Shown here piece after piece: positions 1 through 43,836 of a stretch of DNA of 64,000 nt (position 1 is the stretch's first letter; each line of letters starts with the position of its first letter). The translations under genes and the position numbers were made by a program. The notes beneath the pieces are model-generated. The model was not told the origin of the DNA and ran no database searches. It was given only the letters and a program-made list of their open reading frames with translations. The stretch is taken from assembly GCA_900112915.1 (NCBI GenBank), contig FONK01000003.1:108080-172079 (forward strand), read 5' to 3'. Source of the DNA: Peptostreptococcaceae bacterium pGA-8 (GTDB taxonomy: Bacteria > Bacillota > Clostridia > Peptostreptococcales > Anaerovoracaceae).

Positions 1-1482
1 TTCGGCTATGCAGTTAGAAAGGTTGCAAGAGAAGACGCTGAGGTAGTGTGCCTTCTGGACAAAAAAACCGACATGGTCTTGCGGGGAGAGTCCATAAGTC
101 AGCTCATAAAGCTGGTGTTTTCGGAGGTCCATTATGTGGACATTCTAAAGCCGATGGAATGCCTCAAGGGTTTGCGGGCGGATTCTTTGTTCGATGTCAG
201 TATTAACTGCGCTGACATACCCGGTGCGGAGACGATTAATATCTTGGCTACAAAGAGTGGTGGAACTGTTGTTTTTGCAAATTTAATTAACAACTACAAC
301 ATTGCCCTGTATATTACCGAGTCCATATCGAGGCAGCTGGATATCAGGTCTGCTGATGGATATCTTGAGGCTTACGATGATTTTGACATTGAGCTTGTTA
401 AGGATTTGATGCCCTATATTGAGGGGGCAAGTACCGCTAATTTAACTGTAGACGATGACCCGGCATATCCTATTAACAGGCAGACCAGGCTACAGGAGGC
501 CAGCGGACAAAGAAAAAGCTTGCTGGAAGATTTTATTTGTGAGAGCAGGGCTATGGCGGCGGTTTTGGACGAAATTCTCACTGTGAGCAAGTATGACTGC
601 AACGTGCTTATAACGGGAGAAACCGGCGTTGGGAAGGAAAAGGTCGCCAATCTTATCCATAAGAACAGCAATAGAAAGATGCATCCCTTTGTTAAGGTCA
701 ATTGTGCGTCTATAGCGCCTACGCTTATTGAGTCGGAGTTTTTCGGATATGATAAGGGAGCCTTCACCGGAGCCAATGAGAAGGGAAAGAAGGGTTTCTT
801 TGAACTGGCTGACAACGGAACTATATTCCTTGATGAAATCGGTGAGCTTTCTCCGGACATGCAGGCCAAGCTGCTAAGGGTAATTCAGGATGGTGAGTTC
901 TTCCGAGTCGGAGGGACGGTACCTATTAAAACTAATGTCAGAATTTTGTCGGCAACTAACAGGGAGCTGGAGGATTTTATTGAAGAGGGGCTCTTCAGGA
1001 GAGATTTGTATTACAGATTAAATGTAGTGAGGATCAGAGTGCCTAATCTTGAAGAAAGAACGGGGGATATACCTGCCCTGGTCAGATTTTTCCTTGATAA
1101 GTATAATCGCAAGTTTGAAATCAATAGGACTATGGATGACGATGCCATAGAATATTTGAAGCAATGCGATTGGCCGGGAAATATTCGAGAATTAGAAAAT
1201 GTAGTACAAAGACTTATGATTTCTGCAACCGGTGAAAATATAAATCTGCTGGACATTATGAAGGAGCTTCATTCCGATGTGTTTGAGGTATCTCCTGTTA
1301 ATAATCACGATGACAGCGGACCTACCGGGCAGGTGATGGATTTGGAGAAAATGGTATCAAATTTCGAGAAAAATATACTGAAGCATGCCTGCGATCAGTT
1401 TGGCTCTACAAGGAAGGTTGCCAAGGCTGTAGGTATTTCTCAGACCCAACTGGTTAGAAAGAAGAAGAAGTATGGGATTTAA
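1..1482 (+). CDS. Sigma54-dependent activator with Kdd-like sensor domain (5' end outside window)
   Basis: The reading frame is open to the first base, so the start codon lies upstream; 493 residues are visible. Seen: a sensor region (about 1-150), then a sigma54 AAA+ module with Walker A GETGVGKE (about 206-213), the sigma54-contacting loop GAFTGA (about 253-258) and Walker B FLDEIG (about 276-281), and a C-terminal Fis-type helix-turn-helix. There is no receiver or PAS domain. The sensor region aligns with the Rossmann half of the Kdd enzymes encoded immediately downstream; the stretch DVSINCADIPGAE matches DVVINVVNIPNTE of Kdd. Family knowledge: such proteins use ATP to open sigma54 promoters from upstream sites. 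Inference: it activates kdd in response to a lysine-degradation intermediate or NAD(H). Two palindromic sites follow its stop codon, and a sigma54 promoter precedes the next gene. Confidence 0.9.
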   Translation, partial: FGYAVRKVAREDAEVVCLLDKKTDMVLRGESISQLIKLVFSEVHYVDILKPMECLKGLRADSLFDVSINCADIPGAETINILATKSGGTVVFANLINNYNIALYITESISRQLDIRSADGYLEAYDDFDIELVKDLMPYIEGASTANLTVDDDPAYPINRQTRLQEASGQRKSLLEDFICESRAMAAVLDEILTVSKYDCNVLITGETGVGKEKVANLIHKNSNRKMHPFVKVNCASIAPTLIESEFFGYDKGAFTGANEKGKKGFFELADNGTIFLDEIGELSPDMQAKLLRVIQDGEFFRVGGTVPIKTNVRILSATNRELEDFIEEGLFRRDLYYRLNVVRIRVPNLEERTGDIPALVRFFLDKYNRKFEINRTMDDDAIEYLKQCDWPGNIRELENVVQRLMISATGENINLLDIMKELHSDVFEVSPVNNHDDSGPTGQVMDLEKMVSNFEKNILKHACDQFGSTRKVAKAVGISQTQLVRKKKKYGI

Positions 1483-1827: not shown

Positions 1828-1845
1828 TTGGAATGATTCTTGCTA
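1828..1845 (+). promoter_or_regulatory. Sigma54 (-24/-12) promoter of the first kdd
   Basis: TTGGAATGATTCTTGCTA has GG and GC exactly 10 bp apart and the TTGCT of the -12 element. The -24 element is TTGGAA rather than the ideal TTGGCA. Transcription should start near 1855, giving an 85-base leader. The region from 1483 to 1939 holds this promoter, the two palindromes and the terminator, and no gene. Confidence 0.65.
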
Positions 1846-1939: not shown

Positions 1940-2980
1940 ATGACTAATTACAGAAAAGGAAATCCGTTAGGAACTCACAGAGTTGTAAGCCCGAAGGGAG
2001 TGCTTCCGCAGCCTGCTGACATTCTTGACAATGACGAACGCATTTATGATAACGAGGTTGCCATTGATGTGCAGACCTTAAATATAGACTCGGCTTCATT
2101 TACTGAAATTGAAAGAAGAGCCGGCGGTGATGTTGAAAAAATCAAAGAAATTATGATGGACATCGTCGAAAAAACAGGTAAGCACAAGAATCCTTGGACC
2201 GGCTCCGGCGGAATGCTTATCGGAACTGTTAAGGAAATCGGGCCTAACTATAAAGGAGAACTTAAGGTCGGTGACAAAATCGCCACCCTGGTTTCACTGT
2301 CACTTACACCGTTGGTAATTGACGAAATTCTTGAAATCAGACAGGAGATTGACCAGGTAGACATTAAGGGTACTGCTATTTTGTTTGAAAGCGGAATTTA
2401 TTCAATTCTTCCGGATGATATTCCTCAGAACCTTGCGCTGTCTGTACTTGACGTAGCAGGTGCCCCTGCTCAGACTGCAAAAATTGTAAAGCCGGGCGAC
2501 ACCGTAGTCGTTCTGGGCGGCGGCGGAAAGAGCGGAATGCTTTGCTGCGTACAGGCTAAGAAGGAAGCCGGAATCAACGGTAAGGTAATCTGCGTCGACG
2601 GCTTTGACGCTTCAATCGAGAGAGCTAAGAGTGTAGATGCCGCTGATGAGTACATCGTAGGAAATGCAACTGATGCGGTTGGTCTTTTCAATCAGATCAG
2701 CGAATTAACAGGTGGAGCTTTAGCTGATGTGGTTATCAATGTAGTTAATATTCCTAACACTGAGATGGCAAGCATTATGCTTTGTAAGGATAACGGAATG
2801 GTTTACTTCTTCTCTATGGCTTCAGATTTCACCAAGGCAGCTCTGGGTGCTGAAGGTGTGGGCAAGGATATTAACATGCTTGTTGGAAATGGATATACTA
2901 AGGGTCATGCAAATGTTGCGCTCCAGGTTCTCAGAGAAAATGAAAAAATTAGAGAGCTGTTTGCAAAGCTTTATGCGTAA
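1940..2980 (+). CDS. kdd: L-erythro-3,5-diaminohexanoate dehydrogenase, paralogue 1
   Basis: Cytosolic NAD(P)-dependent enzyme of lysine fermentation that oxidatively deaminates 3,5-diaminohexanoate to 5-amino-3-oxohexanoate. The 346 residues fit the family. A medium-chain-dehydrogenase-like N-terminal half contains KHKNPWTGSGGMLIGTV (81-97), and the Rossmann half has GGGGKSG at 193-199. AGGAGG lies 8 bases before the ATG. It is very similar along its whole length to the next gene, but codon choice is less biased (more GCC and GGC), suggesting lower expression or a conditional role. Preceded by a sigma54 promoter and activator sites, so it is probably induced by the upstream activator. Assignment rests on pathway context and recognition of the family; substrate preference between the two copies cannot be told. 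Confidence 0.88.
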   Translation: MTNYRKGNPLGTHRVVSPKGVLPQPADILDNDERIYDNEVAIDVQTLNIDSASFTEIERRAGGDVEKIKEIMMDIVEKTGKHKNPWTGSGGMLIGTVKEIGPNYKGELKVGDKIATLVSLSLTPLVIDEILEIRQEIDQVDIKGTAILFESGIYSILPDDIPQNLALSVLDVAGAPAQTAKIVKPGDTVVVLGGGGKSGMLCCVQAKKEAGINGKVICVDGFDASIERAKSVDAADEYIVGNATDAVGLFNQISELTGGALADVVINVVNIPNTEMASIMLCKDNGMVYFFSMASDFTKAALGAEGVGKDINMLVGNGYTKGHANVALQVLRENEKIRELFAKLYA

Positions 2981-3220: not shown

Positions 3221-4252
3221 ATGAAAAAAGGATGCCCTTACGGAACACACAGAGTAATTTCACCAAAGGGAGTACTACCACAGCCGGCAGATGTTATTGA
3301 TAACACTATGGAAATCTATGATAACGAGGTTCTTATTGATGTTAAAACTTTAAACATCGACTCAGCTTCATTCACTGAAATCGAAAGAAGAGCAGGCGGA
3401 GAGGTTGAAGAAATCAAGAAGATCATGCTTGGTATCGTAGAAAAAGCTGGAAAGCACAAGAATCCTTGGACCGGTTCAGGCGGAATGCTTATCGGTACAG
3501 TTAAGGAAATCGGTGACAACTATGAAGGAGATCTTAAGGTTGGAGATAAAATCGCTACACTGGTTTCCCTATCACTTACACCGCTTGTAATTGAAGAAAT
3601 TCTTGAAGTAAGACCTGACATTGACCAGGTTGACATCAAGGGTCAGGCTATCCTGTTCCAGAGCGGAATCTATGCAAAGCTTCCTGAAGATATGCCGGAA
3701 GGACTTGCTCTTTCAGCTCTTGACGTAGCAGGTGCTCCTGCTCAGACTGCTAAGCTGGTTAAACCCGGACAGACTGTTCTGGTTATCGGCGGCGGCGGAA
3801 AGTCCGGACTTCTTTGTCTATACGAAGCAAAGAAGAGAGCCGGCGTAACAGGCAAGGTAATCTGTGCTGCAGGTTCACAGAAATCAGAAGACAGAGCAAG
3901 AAAGCTGAACTTGGCTGACGAATACTTCCATCTGGATGCTACTGATGCTGTTGGAATGTACAACAAGATCGTAGAGCTTACAAATGGTGAACTTTGCGAC
4001 CTTGTAATCAACAACGTTAACATTGAAAACACAGAAATGGCTTCAATCCTTGCTTGTAAGGATGACGGTCTTGTATACTTCTTCTCAATGGCAACAAGCT
4101 TCACAAAGGCAGCTCTTGGTGCAGAAGGCGTAGGTAAAGACGTTAATATGATTATCGGTAACGGATACACTAAGGGTCACGCTGAGATCACTCTACAGTG
4201 CTTAAGAGAGCATGAAGGCCTAAGAAACCTATTCCAGGAAATGTACGCATAA
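3221..4252 (+). CDS. kdd: L-erythro-3,5-diaminohexanoate dehydrogenase, paralogue 2
   Basis: Same reaction as the preceding gene. 343 residues; the N-terminal motif KHKNPWTGSGGML and the nucleotide-binding GGGGKSG (190-196) are conserved. GGGAGG lies 11 bases before the ATG. Codon use is strongly biased to the preferred set seen in kamA, kamD and PFOR, so this is likely the main catabolic copy. Spacing of 240 bp from the first copy, with a regulatory palindrome in between, argues for separate transcription starts. The two copies may differ in cofactor or in the six-carbon versus five-carbon diamine; this cannot be decided from sequence. Confidence 0.9.
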   Translation: MKKGCPYGTHRVISPKGVLPQPADVIDNTMEIYDNEVLIDVKTLNIDSASFTEIERRAGGEVEEIKKIMLGIVEKAGKHKNPWTGSGGMLIGTVKEIGDNYEGDLKVGDKIATLVSLSLTPLVIEEILEVRPDIDQVDIKGQAILFQSGIYAKLPEDMPEGLALSALDVAGAPAQTAKLVKPGQTVLVIGGGGKSGLLCLYEAKKRAGVTGKVICAAGSQKSEDRARKLNLADEYFHLDATDAVGMYNKIVELTNGELCDLVINNVNIENTEMASILACKDDGLVYFFSMATSFTKAALGAEGVGKDVNMIIGNGYTKGHAEITLQCLREHEGLRNLFQEMYA

Positions 4253-25916: not shown

Positions 25917-27380
25917 TTAAGCTTCCATGTTCTTCTTTAGCTGAACTTGCGGTTCTCTTGGAAGAGAGAATAGAGGTACGAATCTGTCTAATCCTGTGAA
26001 TGTTAGAAGTAGTAATGATGCTACCGCAATCATTGCCATGAAGTTGTACTGGATGAAGTTCATAGCTGTGAACTTGTATAGAGGATATACGTTTACTGCG
26101 ATTCCTACATAGAATGCAAGGTATACGTGCCAAGGAATCAACTGTGATCCGAATACGCCCATTGCGTCTCCGAAAGTAGCATTTCTTAGCTTGATCTTGT
26201 ACATATCTTCTTCACTACCAACGATGTTTTCTTCAGCGATATCCTTGATGATAGGTCCGATTGTTACAATCTGAGCCATTTCGTCTGAAAGGATAGCGTT
26301 ACCTAGGATGCAAAGAACTCCATTGAAGCCCATAAGTATTCTTACGCGACCTGACATTGCAACGATAAGCTTTGCAATCGGATCGAAAGCCTTCATAGCT
26401 CCCATTACGCCACCAAATGCTGCAACCCACATCATCATTACAACTACCCATGAACCTGCATCAGCAAATCCCTTCATGCAAAGGTCTAGGTATTCCTGAA
26501 GGTTTCCGGTAGTTCCGGCTGCAAGACCAAGCAGGTAAGCGGATACGATACCTGAACCGATACAAGCGAAAGTGTTAACGCCTGCAATAGCAAGACCGAT
26601 TACCAGAAGTAGAGGAATAATCATGTAAACAGCTACACCGTCTCTAACCTGATTTAGAAGGTCAATAGCAACCGGCTTTTCTTCTGCCAGATAGTCAAGG
26701 GCAGACTGAGGAATGTTATCCATAACGCCGGATGTGTCAGCAGTTGCAGTTGATAGACCCATAGCAGTACCAACGATGAAGAATACGATAGCAGCAAGGA
26801 TTAGGCAGCTTACAGACCAAACACCCTGTGTTCTAACTCTGTCTACTACTTCAACTCCCTGGATACCGGAAGATACGATTGTTGTATCTGAGATAAGTCC
26901 GATGTTGTCTCCGAAGCAAGCACCACCTGCGATTGCACAAGTTGTAAGAACGATGTCGCCTCCAACAATGTGGTTCAACCATAGGAAGATAGGTGCGCAC
27001 GCTGCGAATGTTCCCCATGAAGTACCTGTTGCAACTGAAAGTATAGCAGTTACCGCGATACCGACAACAGCGATAGTTCTAGCTGTTACACCTAGTGAAA
27101 GAGCCAGGTTTACAACAGAAGCTCCTACACCTGTTGTCATGAATGCTGATGCCATAGCATAAGCGAACATTAGGATGAAAAGTGCTACAAGGATGTTGCT
27201 AACGCTCTTCATAGCTACATCGATACACTCTTTGAATTTGATGCCTGCAACTAATCTAGCAACAGCGATTGCAACGATACAAGCGATTGGTGCTGCGATT
27301 AGAGCATCCTGACCGGACATCATTAGACCTGCTAATACGCAAACCGGTAAAAATTTAATAATTGCTTTTAAAAAATTCAT
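25917..27380 (-). CDS. NhaC-family antiporter, candidate lysine permease
   Basis: 487 residues with about 12 membrane spans and NhaC-family features: TGTSWGTFAACAPIF, GGACFGDNIGLISDTTIVSS and SDEMAQIVTIGPI. NhaC proteins are formally Na+/H+ antiporters, but members under lysine riboswitches have been proposed as lysine carriers (family knowledge). Here it has a near-perfect sigma54 promoter and lies head to head with an activator whose sensor resembles a lysine-pathway enzyme, so I infer lysine uptake, perhaps with sodium or in exchange for a product. GAAAGG precedes the ATG. The codon bias is strong, as in the pathway genes. Confidence 0.85.
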   Translation of the reverse strand: MNFLKAIIKFLPVCVLAGLMMSGQDALIAAPIACIVAIAVARLVAGIKFKECIDVAMKSVSNILVALFILMFAYAMASAFMTTGVGASVVNLALSLGVTARTIAVVGIAVTAILSVATGTSWGTFAACAPIFLWLNHIVGGDIVLTTCAIAGGACFGDNIGLISDTTIVSSGIQGVEVVDRVRTQGVWSVSCLILAAIVFFIVGTAMGLSTATADTSGVMDNIPQSALDYLAEEKPVAIDLLNQVRDGVAVYMIIPLLLVIGLAIAGVNTFACIGSGIVSAYLLGLAAGTTGNLQEYLDLCMKGFADAGSWVVVMMMWVAAFGGVMGAMKAFDPIAKLIVAMSGRVRILMGFNGVLCILGNAILSDEMAQIVTIGPIIKDIAEENIVGSEEDMYKIKLRNATFGDAMGVFGSQLIPWHVYLAFYVGIAVNVYPLYKFTAMNFIQYNFMAMIAVASLLLLTFTGLDRFVPLFSLPREPQVQLKKNMEA

Positions 27381-27454: not shown

Positions 27455-27471
27455 AGCAAGTTGTGTGCCAA
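27455..27471 (-). promoter_or_regulatory. Sigma54 (-24/-12) promoter of the NhaC-family gene
   Basis: On the minus strand TTGGCACACAACTTGCT, almost the ideal TTGGCAC-N5-TTGCT with GG and GC 10 bp apart. Predicted start near 27444, leader about 64 bases. This is the best sigma54 promoter in the window. Confidence 0.88.
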
Positions 27472-27570: not shown

Positions 27571-27650
27571 TGACTATTTGATGGTGACCCACTTTTGTGA
27601 ATGCGTGCAAAAATAAGCACCAAAAATGGGTCAAAACTATTGACTATTTG
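27571..27650. promoter_or_regulatory. Enhancer/operator region between the activator and the NhaC gene
   Basis: Inverted repeat TGACCCACTTTTGTG (27585-27599) and CACCAAAAATGGGTCA (27618-27633), bracketed by exact direct repeats TGACTATTTG (27571-27580 and 27641-27650). The centre is about 150 bp from the -12 element of the NhaC promoter, ideal for an enhancer, and it adjoins the -35 of the activator gene, suggesting autoregulation. The 351-bp interval 27381-27731 holds only these elements and the two promoters. Confidence 0.65.
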
Positions 27651-27731: not shown

Positions 27732-29840
27732 ATGGCTGATGATAGAGATTTCGGTATGGGAAGAGTCCTTTATCCGAAGAATGTAGCCCCTGTTGCTGCC
27801 TGGAAAATTGACAACAGTATTGAGATAAGCCCAAGGGAGGCCAGAATTAAAATTGAAGTAATTCATATTGAGTGTGACAGCTTTCAACAGATTTGCAGTG
27901 CTTGCGGCTATGACGAGGCTAAGATTAAGGCAAAGATATTTGATATAATTGAGAAAAGAGGCAAGCTGCATAACCCCTTCACCAAAAGCGGAGGCGTTTT
28001 GTTAGGAACAGTTGATGCTATAGGCAGTGAGTTTAACTCCCAAACACCGATTGCCCCGGGGGATAGTGTTTATTGTATAACATCAATTTCGGGGATGCCG
28101 ATAAAGCTGGAATCCATAGAAGCGATAGATTATGATTACGGACAGATTACCTGTACCGGGTACGGAATTATTTTTGAGTCATTTCCGGTGCGGAAAAGAA
28201 TGTTTTTAGATATTGATCCAAGCTATGCTCTTGCAGCAGTAGACGAGGCGAGTTCTTTCTTCGGTTCATATAACTTGGCAAAGGATATAGATACTGTAGC
28301 CATAATCGGTAAATCCATTCATACGACACTTCTCTACGGGGCAGCTATAAAAGAAGCCAAGGGTGACAATGCAAAAATTGTAGCCATAATGGACAACCAT
28401 GTTAATGATCAGCTTACTCACGAAGAGATTGCTTCTGCTATGTCGAAAACCATTGACAGCACATTTTTTGTCGATTTGACAAGACCTATGGAAGCCTTTG
28501 ACTATATAAAGGAAGAGCACTCCACAACATATCTTCCGATTAAGAGTCTTCATGAGGGAAGCGTGGATTTGATAATTGTAGCTGAGGATATATTCGGGGC
28601 TGAAACCGTTGCCGTTGCATTAATTAAGCCAAAGGGGAACTTGTATTTTTCATCTGTCGAAAACCATTATGCTACGGCATCTCTAATCGCTGAAACCTTG
28701 GGAAAAGAAATGACTATGCACTCTTTTGAGCAGTATTCCCATGATTACCCTGAGTTTACATTGAAACTGCTTTTAAAGGTTAGAGATGAGCTTGAGGCAC
28801 TGAATAGACTTTATCGGGAGAAGCGACAGAAGAAGGCTTTGACAGAAAGTCAGAGCAGAAATATGAGAGTTACCAAAATAGGAGCATCTGACGACTTTGT
28901 GTTCCAGAGCCTGGTGACAAAAAATATGGTCGATGAGGTTTTGAATATTGCCAAGTACGATTGCAATGTAATCATCCAAGGGGAAACCGGTGTCGGCAAG
29001 GAGAAGGTTTTGTCCATTATACATCAAAACAGTCAACGCCGCAGTGAACCGTGCATTAAGATTAACTGTGCAACAATCGCAGAGAATTTAGCAGAGTCAG
29101 AATTCTTTGGCTATGAGCCGGGAGCTTTTACAGGTGCAAGGGATGCAGGGAAAAAGGGCTATTTTGAAATGGCAAATAACGGGATTTTATTTCTGGATGA
29201 AATAGGAGCCCTTTCCATTAATATGCAGTCGAAGCTGCTCAGAGTTTTACAAGAAAGCCAGTTTTATAGAGTAGGTGGAACCCAACAGGTTTCCGTAAAT
29301 GTAAGGGTAATCGTTGCCAATAATATTAATTTAAAGAAATTGGTGAAGGATGGAGAATTTAGAGAGGACCTTTATTATAGATTGAACATTTGCACTATTG
29401 AAGTTCCGCCGCTTCGAGAGAGGCGAGAGGATGTGATTTGTCTATCTGAAGCCTTTGTTGATAATTGGAGGAAGAAGTATTCTCTGGAAAAAGAACTTTC
29501 TCCGGGAGCTTTGACAGCCCTCTATCACTACGATTGGCCGGGCAATGTAAGAGAATTGGAGAATGTTATTCATCGTCTTGTTATAAGCAGTAGGAATATT
29601 GTTCTTAGTGAAGAGGATGTAACTGATTTGCTTCAGGAAAGCACCTATGGAGAGCTGGTTCTCAATGTGAAGAAGGGGCTTATGTCGGATAACACTGATT
29701 TTCATGTGCTTATGGAGCAGCAGGAGAAGCAAATCATAGAATATGCACTTAATAAATGCAAAACTACAAGAAAGGCCGCTGATTTTCTTGGCTTGCCACA
29801 GACCACCTTTGCCAGGAAGAAGATTAAGCATGGATTGTAG
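27732..29840 (+). CDS. Sigma54-dependent activator with complete Kdd-like sensor domain
   Basis: 702 residues from the ATG preceded by AAAGGA. Residues about 10-360 align with the whole Kdd enzyme: LHNPFTKSGGVLLGTVDAIG corresponds to KHKNPWTGSGGMLIGTVKEIG less its end, and GSVDLIIVAEDIFGAE to its Rossmann half. The nucleotide-binding GGGGKSG of the enzyme is replaced by IIGKSIHTTLL (190-201), so catalysis is unlikely. A linker leads to the AAA+ module: Walker A GETGVGKE (417-424), GAFTGA (464-469), Walker B FLDEIG; the C-terminal Fis-type helix-turn-helix ends with KTTRKAADFLGLPQTTFARK. Inference: binds 3,5-diaminohexanoate or a related intermediate and switches on the divergent transporter gene. 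No receiver domain, so control is by ligand. Confidence 0.93.
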   Translation: MADDRDFGMGRVLYPKNVAPVAAWKIDNSIEISPREARIKIEVIHIECDSFQQICSACGYDEAKIKAKIFDIIEKRGKLHNPFTKSGGVLLGTVDAIGSEFNSQTPIAPGDSVYCITSISGMPIKLESIEAIDYDYGQITCTGYGIIFESFPVRKRMFLDIDPSYALAAVDEASSFFGSYNLAKDIDTVAIIGKSIHTTLLYGAAIKEAKGDNAKIVAIMDNHVNDQLTHEEIASAMSKTIDSTFFVDLTRPMEAFDYIKEEHSTTYLPIKSLHEGSVDLIIVAEDIFGAETVAVALIKPKGNLYFSSVENHYATASLIAETLGKEMTMHSFEQYSHDYPEFTLKLLLKVRDELEALNRLYREKRQKKALTESQSRNMRVTKIGASDDFVFQSLVTKNMVDEVLNIAKYDCNVIIQGETGVGKEKVLSIIHQNSQRRSEPCIKINCATIAENLAESEFFGYEPGAFTGARDAGKKGYFEMANNGILFLDEIGALSINMQSKLLRVLQESQFYRVGGTQQVSVNVRVIVANNINLKKLVKDGEFREDLYYRLNICTIEVPPLRERREDVICLSEAFVDNWRKKYSLEKELSPGALTALYHYDWPGNVRELENVIHRLVISSRNIVLSEEDVTDLLQESTYGELVLNVKKGLMSDNTDFHVLMEQQEKQIIEYALNKCKTTRKAADFLGLPQTTFARKKIKHGL

Positions 29841-29944: not shown

Positions 29945-31258
29945 ATGAGTAAAATGGAAATCGGCAAAAAAAGTTGTGATAATGAAAAAATGATAGACCT
30001 GATGAAGGACTACCGAGAAATTTTTTGGCTAAATCCCGGAGTAAATGCAGAGGAATGTAACGAGACACCACCGGCAGTTACTGTGAATGACATTGATGAG
30101 GCGGAAGCGAGATTAATAAGGTTTGCACCTTACATTGCAAAGGTGTTTCCTGAAACAGGGAAAACCGCCGGAATAATTGAATCGCCATTGACAGAGGTGC
30201 CTGAGCTTAAGAAGGCGTTAAATGCCGATGAAAAACAGGAGCTTGCCGGAAGCCTATATTTAAAATGCGACAGTCATCTGCCGATTTCAGGTTCCATAAA
30301 GGCAAGAGGCGGTATTTACGAAGTGCTGAAGCTGGCAGAGAAACTCGCCGTGGAGGCAGGTCTTTTGTCCTATGATGACGACTATGCAGTTTTGGCTGAG
30401 GACAGATTTAAGGAATTCTTTTCCAAATATAGTGTGGCTGTCGGTTCCACCGGGAATTTAGGGCTGTCTATTGGGATTATAAGTGCTAAGCTGGGATTTA
30501 AGGTTACGGTTCATATGTCCGCCGATGCAAGGGAATGGAAGAAAGCCTTGCTGAGGGAGAAGGGTGCCATAGTTACAGAATATGAGTATGACTATGGTAA
30601 AGCCGTTGAAGAGGGCAGAGCCTTGGCGGCAAAAGACCCTAAGTGCCATTTTGTCGATGATGAGGCTTCGGTTGATTTGTTTTTAGGCTATGCCGTGGCA
30701 GGACGCAGGCTGGCAAAGCAGCTTAAGGAAAAGAATATTTCTGTTGACAATGAGCATCCGTTATATGTGTATATCCCTTGTGGAGTTGGTGGTGCTCCGG
30801 GTGGAGTCGTGTTCGGATTGAAAGAAATATTTGGTGAAGATGTTCAATGCTTTTTTGCCGAGCCTACTCATGCACCTTGTATGACTTTGGGACTTTTGAC
30901 GGGGCTTCATAGTAAGATTTCAGTAAAGGATATCGGGTTAGATGGGGTGACCGCTGCTGATGGATTGGCTGTTTCGAGACCTTCGGCACTAGTCGGCAGG
31001 CTGATGGAAACCAGACTTCAAGGATGTTTTACAGCTGATGATGAAAGACTCTACCCGTATTTGAATAAGCTTTATGAAGGGGACGGAATTTTTGTTGAGC
31101 CCTCTGCCTGTGCCACCTTTAGGGGACCTTATTTGGTGGAGAAGGTTTATGGTGATATGGGGAAAAAAGAATTTAAAAAGGCGACCCACATTCTTTGGGC
31201 CACCGGTGGAAGCATGGTTCCTGAAGATGAAAAAAGAAGCTATCTGAATTTAAGGTGA
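29945..31258 (+). CDS. dsdA: D-serine dehydratase
   Basis: PLP-dependent D-serine ammonia-lyase giving pyruvate and ammonia. 437 residues, against 442 in E. coli. The PLP lysine is in [12 protein letters not shown]; the tetraglycine-like phosphate loop appears as [10 protein letters not shown] and SVGSTGNLG is the substrate loop. The product feeds the PFOR encoded nearby. AGGAGAG lies 6 bases before the ATG. It follows the activator by 104 bases in the same direction with no clear terminator between, so co-transcription is possible. A candidate terminator (AAGATT/AATCTT and AAGCCG/CGGCTT, 31334-31382) overlaps the end of the convergent gene. Confidence 0.93.
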
Positions 31259-43005: not shown

Positions 43006-43836
43006 ATGGAAAAACTAATTATCAGTTCTTGTATTTGTGGTGCTGAGGTAACTAAAGAGCAGAATCCTAATGTGCCTTACACTGTGGAAGAAATAGTTCG
43101 TGAAGCTAAATCAGCTTATGATGCGGGTGCGGCAGTTATTCATCTACATGTAAGATGGGATGACGGTACTCCTACTCAGAGCACTGAAAGATTTCAGGAA
43201 TGTGTTGATGCTATCAGAGAGGTCTGCCCTGATGTAATAATCCAGCCTTCAACAGGCGGAGCTGTTGGTATGACTGACCTTGAGAGACTGGCTTCAACTG
43301 ATATCGTTCCTACACCTGAGTTTGCAACTCTTGACTGTGGAACCTGCAACTTCGGTGGAGATGAAATCTTCGTAAACACTGATACAACAATTGAAAACTT
43401 TGCTAAAATCATGAAGGAAAGAGGCATCAAGCCTGAGCTTGAGGTTTTTGACAAAGGTATGATCGATACAGCTCTTAAGGTAGACAAGAAGGGTCTTCTT
43501 GTTCACCCCCTACACTTTGATTTCGTACTTGGTGTACAGATGACAGCTACAATCAGAGACCTTGTTTTCATGGTAGGATCACTTCCGCCGGGTGCAACCT
43601 GGACTGCTACAGGTCTTGGAAAGAATGCTTGGGCAATCGCTGCGGCTACTATTGCTATGGGCGGACATGTAAGAGTCGGATTTGAAGATCACCTGTACAT
43701 CGAAAAGGGTGTTCTGGCAGAAAGCAACGGACAGTTGGTTGAAAAGGCTGTTAAGCTTGCAAAGCTTCTAGGCAGACCTATTGCTAACCCGACAGAAGCA
43801 AGAGAAATCTTAGGAATGCCACCTCTAAAGAAATAG
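43006..43836 (+). CDS. kce: 3-Keto-5-aminohexanoate cleavage enzyme
   Basis: 276 residues of the BKACE family. Zn-dependent; condenses 5-amino-3-oxohexanoate with acetyl-CoA and splits it to 3-aminobutyryl-CoA and acetoacetate, the step after Kdd. Seen: GAAVIHLHVRWDDG with zinc histidines, a conserved LLVHPLHFDF block and GKNAW. Highly biased codon use, like kamA and unlike its neighbours rapZ and whiA. GGAG lies 9 bases before the ATG. Placed between rapZ and whiA, about 29 kb from the rest of the pathway in this window. Confidence 0.93.
   Translation: MEKLIISSCICGAEVTKEQNPNVPYTVEEIVREAKSAYDAGAAVIHLHVRWDDGTPTQSTERFQECVDAIREVCPDVIIQPSTGGAVGMTDLERLASTDIVPTPEFATLDCGTCNFGGDEIFVNTDTTIENFAKIMKERGIKPELEVFDKGMIDTALKVDKKGLLVHPLHFDFVLGVQMTATIRDLVFMVGSLPPGATWTATGLGKNAWAIAAATIAMGGHVRVGFEDHLYIEKGVLAESNGQLVEKAVKLAKLLGRPIANPTEAREILGMPPLKK

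What the first reader, a model, noticed from the sequence alone, without database searches (positions are those of the whole stretch)
27732..29840. Activator with a whole Kdd-like enzyme domain as its sensor
Seen: residues 10-360 follow Kdd along its full length, and the nucleotide-binding glycines are lost (GGGGKSG to GKSIHTT). The rest is a complete sigma54 activator. Known: sigma54 activators usually sense through receiver, PAS, GAF or ACT domains. Inference: a duplicated kdd was fused to the activator and became a sensor of 3,5-diaminohexanoate or another pathway intermediate. I do not know a described example, but cannot search.
Basis: partly seen in the sequence, partly recalled or inferred. 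Interest (0 to 1): 0.85.

Follow-up and report, generated by a model that had tools for sequence, protein, structure and literature searches.

The report
Retired lysine enzyme turned gene sensor
In a group of bacteria related to Emergencia and Anaerovorax, a copy of a lysine-degrading enzyme that has lost its cofactor motif is fused to a sigma54 gene activator, where it likely serves as the sensor for a small amino acid; in this gene that is probably one handled by the neighbouring transporter and D-serine-degrading enzyme, not a lysine product.

Summary

The lysine reading fits a paralogue, not this protein. The paralogue's clade lies directly upstream of kdd, with perfect sigma54 promoters towards kdd in 32 of 43 intergenic regions and its own palindromic site. 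This protein's clade has another site, a perfect sigma54 promoter towards an NhaC-family transporter in 10 of 13 regions, and usually dsdA (D-serine ammonia-lyase) downstream.

Best reading: an enzyme became a sensor once and its copies spread to other amino acids. For this copy I propose D-serine or the NhaC substrate; ligand binding is untested. Ten literature searches found no description.

The parts
27732..29840 (+). Kdd-domain sigma54 activator (P0001, 702 aa)
27732..28841 (+). N-terminal Kdd-like sensor domain (residues 1-370)
28308..28328 (+). Former nucleotide-binding motif, GKSIHTT where Kdd has GGGGKSG (residues 193-199)
28905..29402 (+). AAA+ sigma54-interaction domain (residues 392-557) with GAFTGA
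   Evidence: GAFTGA read
29712..29834 (+). Fis-type helix-turn-helix (residues 661-701)
   Evidence: PF18024 23.3 bits, under its cut-off of 27; PF02954 19.8, cut-off 22
27455..27470 (-). -24/-12 sigma54 promoter TGGCACACAACTTGCT pointing to the NhaC-family gene
   Evidence: only perfect match in the window
27620..27633 (+). Predicted activator site CCAAAAATGGGTCA
27585..27598 (-). Second predicted activator site ACAAAAGTGGGTCA (2 mismatches), 35 bp away, inverted
25917..27380 (-). NhaC-family transporter, predicted target (62.9 bits against the NhaC equivalog cut-off of 370: family member, not NhaC itself)
29945..31258 (+). D-serine ammonia-lyase (dsdA), 104 bp downstream
   Evidence: TIGR02035 639 bits, cut-off 368
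1..1482 (+). 3' part of the lysine-type paralogue P0080 (starts before the window; whole gene is L010 9478-11562)
1940..2980 (+). True Kdd, first copy
   Evidence: NF052381 260.6 bits, cut-off 200
3221..4252 (+). True Kdd, second copy
   Evidence: 260.9 bits
1518..1564 (+). Pair of lysine-type activator sites GAAACTAAAACGGTTC, 31 bp apart (comparison with the site of the paralogue)
1829..1844 (+). -24/-12-like sequence before kdd, one mismatch

Best explanation
The protein is a sigma54 activator whose sensor is a former Kdd enzyme that has lost its nucleotide motif; it likely binds a small amino acid, predicted to be D-serine or whatever the neighbouring NhaC-family carrier moves, and would then switch on the divergent transporter gene. 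Shown: the two-part architecture, the Kdd fold by prediction, the lost glycine motif, the intact AAA+ part, a perfect -24/-12 promoter in front of the transporter gene that is conserved in the clade, and a clade-specific paired DNA site between the two genes. Inferred: the fusion happened once, in an ancestor that stood beside kdd and probably sensed the Kdd substrate or a close relative; copies then took on new ligands (lysine pathway, a 4-aminobutyrate-like pathway, this one). Proposed mechanism: ligand sits in the old substrate cleft, no hydride transfer follows, closing of the two lobes frees the AAA+ ring to form a hexamer at the paired sites and remodel sigma54-RNA polymerase at the NhaC promoter; dsdA is probably read with the activator gene. 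Each step after ligand binding is the standard sigma54-activator scheme (recalled) and untested here.
For: Architecture and fold. Motif loss: of 99 core activators 0 keep G193, 0 K194, 0 G196, 8 keep G192, 33 keep S195, while 89 keep G190 (P0083 numbering). Sites invariant in Kdd are kept in at least 90% of core activators at 22 of 61 positions in the catalytic lobe (1-155) but 5 of 48 in the Rossmann lobe, as expected if the substrate side is kept and the cofactor side is not. V169 of all 97 Kdds is E in 89 of 99 core and all 3 deep activators. One branch separates 49 activators from 25 Kdds, SH-aLRT 99; the AAA+ tree repeats it, support 83. Transporter promoter: 10 of 13 divergent regions have a perfect site towards NhaC, 0 of 13 towards the activator, reversed-pattern control 0. 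Own genome: one RpoN, 7 perfect promoters against 0 for the reversed pattern, one of them this one. The 15-mer CCAAAAATGGGTCAA occurs once perfectly in the genome, here. DsdA lies downstream in window, L038-L042, L044 and three same-genus genomes, with a gap of 23 bp in L042 and an overlap in L044.
Against: No ligand was tested. dsdA also sits in the same murB-rapZ-kce block in G002 and G015 without any activator beside it, so its neighbourhood may be inherited rather than functional; 16 of 41 relatives have a DsdA but only 4 have this activator next to it. L045 and L047 have activator and NhaC without dsdA, and lack the perfect promoter. The NhaC relative stands without a Kdd-activator in G002, G012, G013, G034 and G036. 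One perfect promoter match per window is not rare by itself (0.24 expected; 23 of 100 shuffles had one). The activator site was found in the same sequences in which it was then counted (circular), and L042 and L044 have it only with 4 and 3 mismatches. E302 (E310 in the solved Kdd, which bonds the NADPH amide; PMC9902596 passage) is kept as E in 96 of 99 core activators, so some nucleotide binding is not excluded.
Confidence: 0.6

Rival explanations
1. The sensor still measures a lysine-pathway intermediate (3,5-diaminohexanoate), and ties transporter expression to lysine fermentation.
For: It descends from Kdd, the lysine cluster is 27 kb away in the same genome, kce is at 43006-43836, and 28 positions are identical at 95% or more in Kdds, lysine-clade and this clade's activators.
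Against: A separate lysine-clade activator exists in the genome, with another DNA site: the half-site CGGTTC/GAACCG is in 41 of 43 kdd regions and 3 of 13 NhaC regions, and the CCAAAAATGGGTCA site at 2 mismatches or fewer is in 0 of 43 kdd regions. Several positions that are fixed in both groups differ between them (49, 170, 264, 266, 275, 301, 305, 313, 315).
Confidence: 0.15
2. The domain is a redox or NADP(H) sensor: the Rossmann lobe still binds a nucleotide in a changed way.
For: The Rossmann lobe is predicted intact, G190 is kept in 89 of 99 and E302 in 96 of 99 core activators; the deepest member keeps GAGGKIG.
Against: Three of the motif positions are kept in 0 of 99 and Rossmann-lobe invariants are kept far less than catalytic-lobe ones. 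The targets are transport and catabolic genes of single amino acids, not redox genes.
Confidence: 0.12
3. The Kdd-like part is only an assembly scaffold (oligomerisation or partner binding) and the signal comes from elsewhere.
For: No ligand pocket was tested; Kdd relatives are oligomeric enzymes (recalled).
Against: 28 of 120 Kdd-invariant sites, 22 of them in the catalytic lobe, stay fixed in at least 90% of 99 activators, and each clade has its own fixed pattern, which a scaffold would not need.
Confidence: 0.1

Closest known systems
L-erythro-3,5-diaminohexanoate dehydrogenase (Kdd; PDB 7dl0, 7dl1, 7dl3, 7dl7)
   Same: Whole fold and length; 31% identity to the nearest Kdd in blastp; catalytic-lobe motif GK..NP.T..GG
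   Different: GGGGKSG lost, V169 to E, fused to AAA+ and HTH; scores under the NCBIfam Kdd cut-off
Sigma54 enhancer-binding proteins of Clostridiales with a one-component sensor (39 groups in Nie 2019, PMC6615313; sections 5 and 7 read)
   Same: AAA+ with GAFTGA, HTH, local target with -24/-12 promoter and upstream sites; OrdR's predicted operon also includes an nhaC
   Different: The sensor domains listed there are PAS, GAF, PTS-HPr, PrpR_N, ACT, CBS, Fer4, Fe_hyd_lg_C, FeS, V4R and response regulator; no Kdd-like domain, no lysine or D-serine group in its Table 1
Fe_hyd_lg_C activators (Nie 2019)
   Same: Precedent for an enzyme-derived domain as the regulatory part of a sigma54 activator
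   Different: Iron hydrogenase domain, not a dehydrogenase
MocR/GabR regulators (recalled, no call)
   Same: A whole aminotransferase-fold domain serves as the sensor of a transcription factor
   Different: GntR-type DNA binding, sigma70 promoters, aminotransferase not dehydrogenase
NmrA and Gal80 (recalled, no call)
   Same: Dehydrogenase-fold proteins turned into transcription regulators
   Different: Fungal, bind dinucleotide, not fused to an AAA+ activator

Membership tests
Sigma54 enhancer-binding protein | AAA+ sigma54-interaction domain over the curated cut-off | tested here: met
   PF00158 214.2 bits, cut-off 20.2
Sigma54 enhancer-binding protein | GAFTGA loop and Walker motifs | tested here: met
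   read in the sequence: GETGVGKE, GAFTGA, LFLDEIG
Sigma54 enhancer-binding protein | C-terminal HTH | tested here: met
   PF18024 661-701, E 5.2e-05 but 23.3 bits, under its cut-off of 27
Sigma54 enhancer-binding protein | RpoN in the genome and a -24/-12 promoter at the target | tested here: met
Sigma54 enhancer-binding protein | ATP-dependent activation of sigma54 transcription | not testable with these tools
   needs a biochemical assay
Kdd enzyme | Full-length Kdd fold | tested here: met
Kdd enzyme | Score over the NCBIfam Kdd cut-off | tested here: not met
   130.5 of 200 bits; the two genomic Kdds score 260.6 and 260.9
Kdd enzyme | Glycine-rich nucleotide motif | tested here: not met
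   GKSIHTT for GGGGKSG
Kdd enzyme | Oxidation of 3,5-diaminohexanoate | not testable with these tools
   needs an enzyme assay
Lysine-cluster Kdd-activator clade (P0080 type) | Adjacent kdd or kal | tested here: not met
   neighbours are an NhaC-family gene and dsdA; 47 of 79 activators in the loci are next to kdd and/or kal
Lysine-cluster Kdd-activator clade (P0080 type) | CGGTTC/GAACCG half-sites next to the gene | tested here: not met
   absent from the window's NhaC region, present in 41 of 43 kdd regions
Lysine-cluster Kdd-activator clade (P0080 type) | Grouping in the sensor and AAA+ trees | tested here: not met
   P0001 falls in the other main clade in both trees

The most novel reading that the evidence does not exclude
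A dead copy of the lysine-fermentation enzyme Kdd was captured once by a sigma54 activator and became a new sensor class. The founding version measured the enzyme's own substrate, 3,5-diaminohexanoate, and switched on kdd and its operon; a graded series from glycine motif kept to motif lost is still alive, and copies were retuned to other amino acids, here D-serine, to run separate transport and fermentation modules.
Probability: 0.4. Interest if true: 0.85.

Novelty: new variant of a known kind. Interest (0 to 1): 0.72.

Why it matters
It gives a whole family of metabolic activators with an enzyme-derived sensor, with predicted DNA sites and predicted targets, and living intermediates between enzyme and sensor. 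If right, it makes the question of how an enzyme turns into a regulator directly testable (same ligand, cofactor site kept or lost), names the missing regulator of the lysine-to-butyrate pathway in these bacteria (the paralogue), and offers amino-acid biosensors.

Tried and rejected
Rejected: a lysine-pathway ligand for this protein (see rivals). Rejected: a recent duplication of the local kdd; the two local Kdds are only distant matches. Rejected: a unique fusion; the family is large (78 hits; 1,024 hits of which 120 were listed; every row listed in both calls carries PF26370 and PF00158). Candidate lengths in those searches shut out most plain Kdds, but the 904 unlisted hits were not seen.

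Led nowhere: sigma70 promoter and terminator scan (15 promoter-like sites, 9.8 expected). First dyad count was spoiled by masked letters and was repeated without them. The kal-activator gap of the own genome has no -24/-12 match at one mismatch, unlike most relatives; it does hold GAACCG sites. Third homologue search listed only close Kdds (120 of 7,999). The AAA+ tree's support for one origin is only 83, and both trees were quick searches on dereplicated rows (74 of 199; 57 of 113) with midpoint rooting. No match in Foldseek or VIA lists other than dehydrogenase-like folds was examined further; absence there shows nothing. Literature: 10 searches; subscription papers are mostly not held, and the domain-architecture review of 2003 (PMC150144) was not held. 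Papers seen: PMC6615313 sections 5 and 7 plus passages; passages only of PMC9902596, PMC6033044, PMC3162934, PMC12316311; all others as search listings.

Full report

How common it is. The window's genome has 7 sigma54 activators, of which 3 carry the Kdd domain: this one (P0001), P0081 on contig C23 (43% identical) and P0080 on the same contig (38%), whose 3' part lies in window 1-1482. In 41 related genomes 15 have at least one full-length, single-frame copy (counted from the matches). In a draw of 299 genomes over the phylum 63 have a match to the Kdd-like domain, but a frame longer than 600 codons is seen only in G000 and G151; the others are Kdd-sized. A scan of the GTDB contigs gave 235 relatives, of which 80 loci were kept. 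From these I took 79 activators over 600 aa; all 79, and the 3 of the window's genome, match a Kdd in blastp with E at most 7e-34. Precomputed Pfam labels put PF26370 on both Kdds and these activators, so databases see the shared domain, but names given are generic.

Origin. In a tree of 74 dereplicated rows (25 Kdd, 49 activator domains) all activators are on one side of one branch, SH-aLRT 99. The order from the Kdd side is L121, then L033 and L035, then the rest. An independent tree of the AAA+ domain (40 Kdd-activators, 17 others) repeats this order and groups the Kdd-activators with support 83. L121, from a genome outside the window's class, is 49% identical to a Kdd, keeps GAGGKIG and lies before a kdd gene. 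L033 has GANGKIG, L035 GAWTKLG; the core has lost the motif. With the root among the Kdds, which I assume because Kdd is far wider spread, this is one capture followed by stepwise loss of the cofactor site. In the core, 22 of 61 Kdd-invariant positions of the catalytic lobe but only 5 of 48 of the Rossmann lobe stay fixed. V169 of all Kdds is glutamate in 89 of 99 core and all 3 deep activators, a candidate ligand contact.

What the clades control. Of 79 activators 47 are next to kdd and/or kal: 44 have kdd downstream, 41 have kal divergent upstream. Between activator and kdd a perfect TGGCAYNNNNNTTGCW towards kdd is in 32 of 43 regions; none points back and the reversed pattern gives 0. The 11 regions without a perfect site include the window's own, which has one mismatch at 1829-1844. 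The same regions hold CGAACCG-N4-CGGTTCG palindromes, often in pairs about 30 bp apart; the half-site is in 41 of 43. P0081 and its relative in Clostridium aminobutyricum (L049) lie before CoA-transferase, thiolase and aminotransferase genes; my label AbfD for the last gene of that set is recalled, NCBIfam gives only HpaB under cut-off. Other members stand beside amino acid permease, AzlC, EamA and NhaC-type genes.

What this one controls. P0001 is divergent to an NhaC-family transporter gene. In 13 divergent NhaC regions (window, 9 loci, 3 same-genus genomes) 10 have a perfect sigma54 promoter towards NhaC; L045, L047 and L064 do not. The window's is at 27455-27470, the only perfect match in 64 kb (0.24 expected) and one of 7 in the genome. 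Between promoter and activator gene lies CCAAAAATGGGTCA, perfect in 6 and with at most 2 mismatches in 9 of 13 regions, often in pairs 30-35 bp apart; shuffled copies typically reach 5 mismatches. The site was derived from these sequences, so the count is not independent. In the whole genome the 15-mer occurs perfectly once, here (with 2 mismatches allowed there is one more, and 2 for the backward control). Downstream is dsdA, over the curated cut-off for D-serine ammonia-lyase. dsdA follows in the window, in L038-L042 and L044 and in G001, G003 and G004, directly or after three other genes.

How it most likely works. A small amino acid is likely bound in the old substrate cleft, the dead cofactor side prevents turnover, and the activator would then form its ring at the paired sites and fire the NhaC promoter. 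D-serine is my first choice because of dsdA, but dsdA stands in the same murB-rapZ-kce block without the activator in G002 and G015, so its closeness may be inherited; the NhaC substrate is the safer statement.

Against known kinds. It is a sigma54 activator by each feature I could test, and not a Kdd enzyme by two tested features. The survey of Clostridiales activators (PMC6615313, sections 5 and 7) lists 39 groups and eleven kinds of sensor domain, none Kdd-like; one, Fe_hyd_lg_C, is also enzyme-derived, so the principle has precedent. Ten searches of open papers found no description. I rate it a new variant of a known kind.

Noticed in passing
window 1940-2980 and 3221-4252: Two different true kdd genes in tandem, both over the Kdd cut-off; the same tandem is seen in a number of relatives, so one may have another substrate.
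   Followed up: partly
L150 9149-11253 (G004): In one same-genus genome the counterpart of this activator is split into two frames by a stop, with NhaC and dsdA still in place.
   Followed up: partly
L038 12083-18904; also L039-L041: Between activator and dsdA lie genes for a ~1590-aa protein with a nucleotidyltransferase-like domain, an LDH/MDH-like protein and an FMN-reductase-like protein, immediately behind the activator; function unclear.
   Followed up: partly
L153 7980-19899 (G032): A deep-branch Kdd-activator followed by a Kdd-like gene, TRAP-transporter-like genes, kce-like, CoA-transferase, kal-like and another kdd: looks like uptake and breakdown of an outside beta-amino acid (labels for TRAP by eye).
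   Followed up: no
L151 5721-15681 (G151): The least changed Kdd-activator (GAGGKIG kept) lies before a kdd and a transporter-like gene and behind what looks like a glycyl-radical enzyme and its activase.
   Followed up: no
L063 2258-6423, L066: Two Kdd-activators in tandem upstream of a kamA-like, CoA-transferase, thiolase and aminotransferase operon with a perfect sigma54 promoter.
   Followed up: no
L050 8007-9752, L051, L055: Kdd-activators divergent to an EamA transporter and a B3/4-domain protein with a perfect sigma54 promoter between.
   Followed up: partly
window 43006-43836: kce, the next enzyme of lysine fermentation, lies apart from the lysine cluster between rapZ and whiA-like genes; the same place is seen in G001-G004 and G015.
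   Followed up: no
L178 7466-9229, L180 3499-4902: NhaC relatives in G034 and G036 lie beside sigma54 activators of another type.
   Followed up: no
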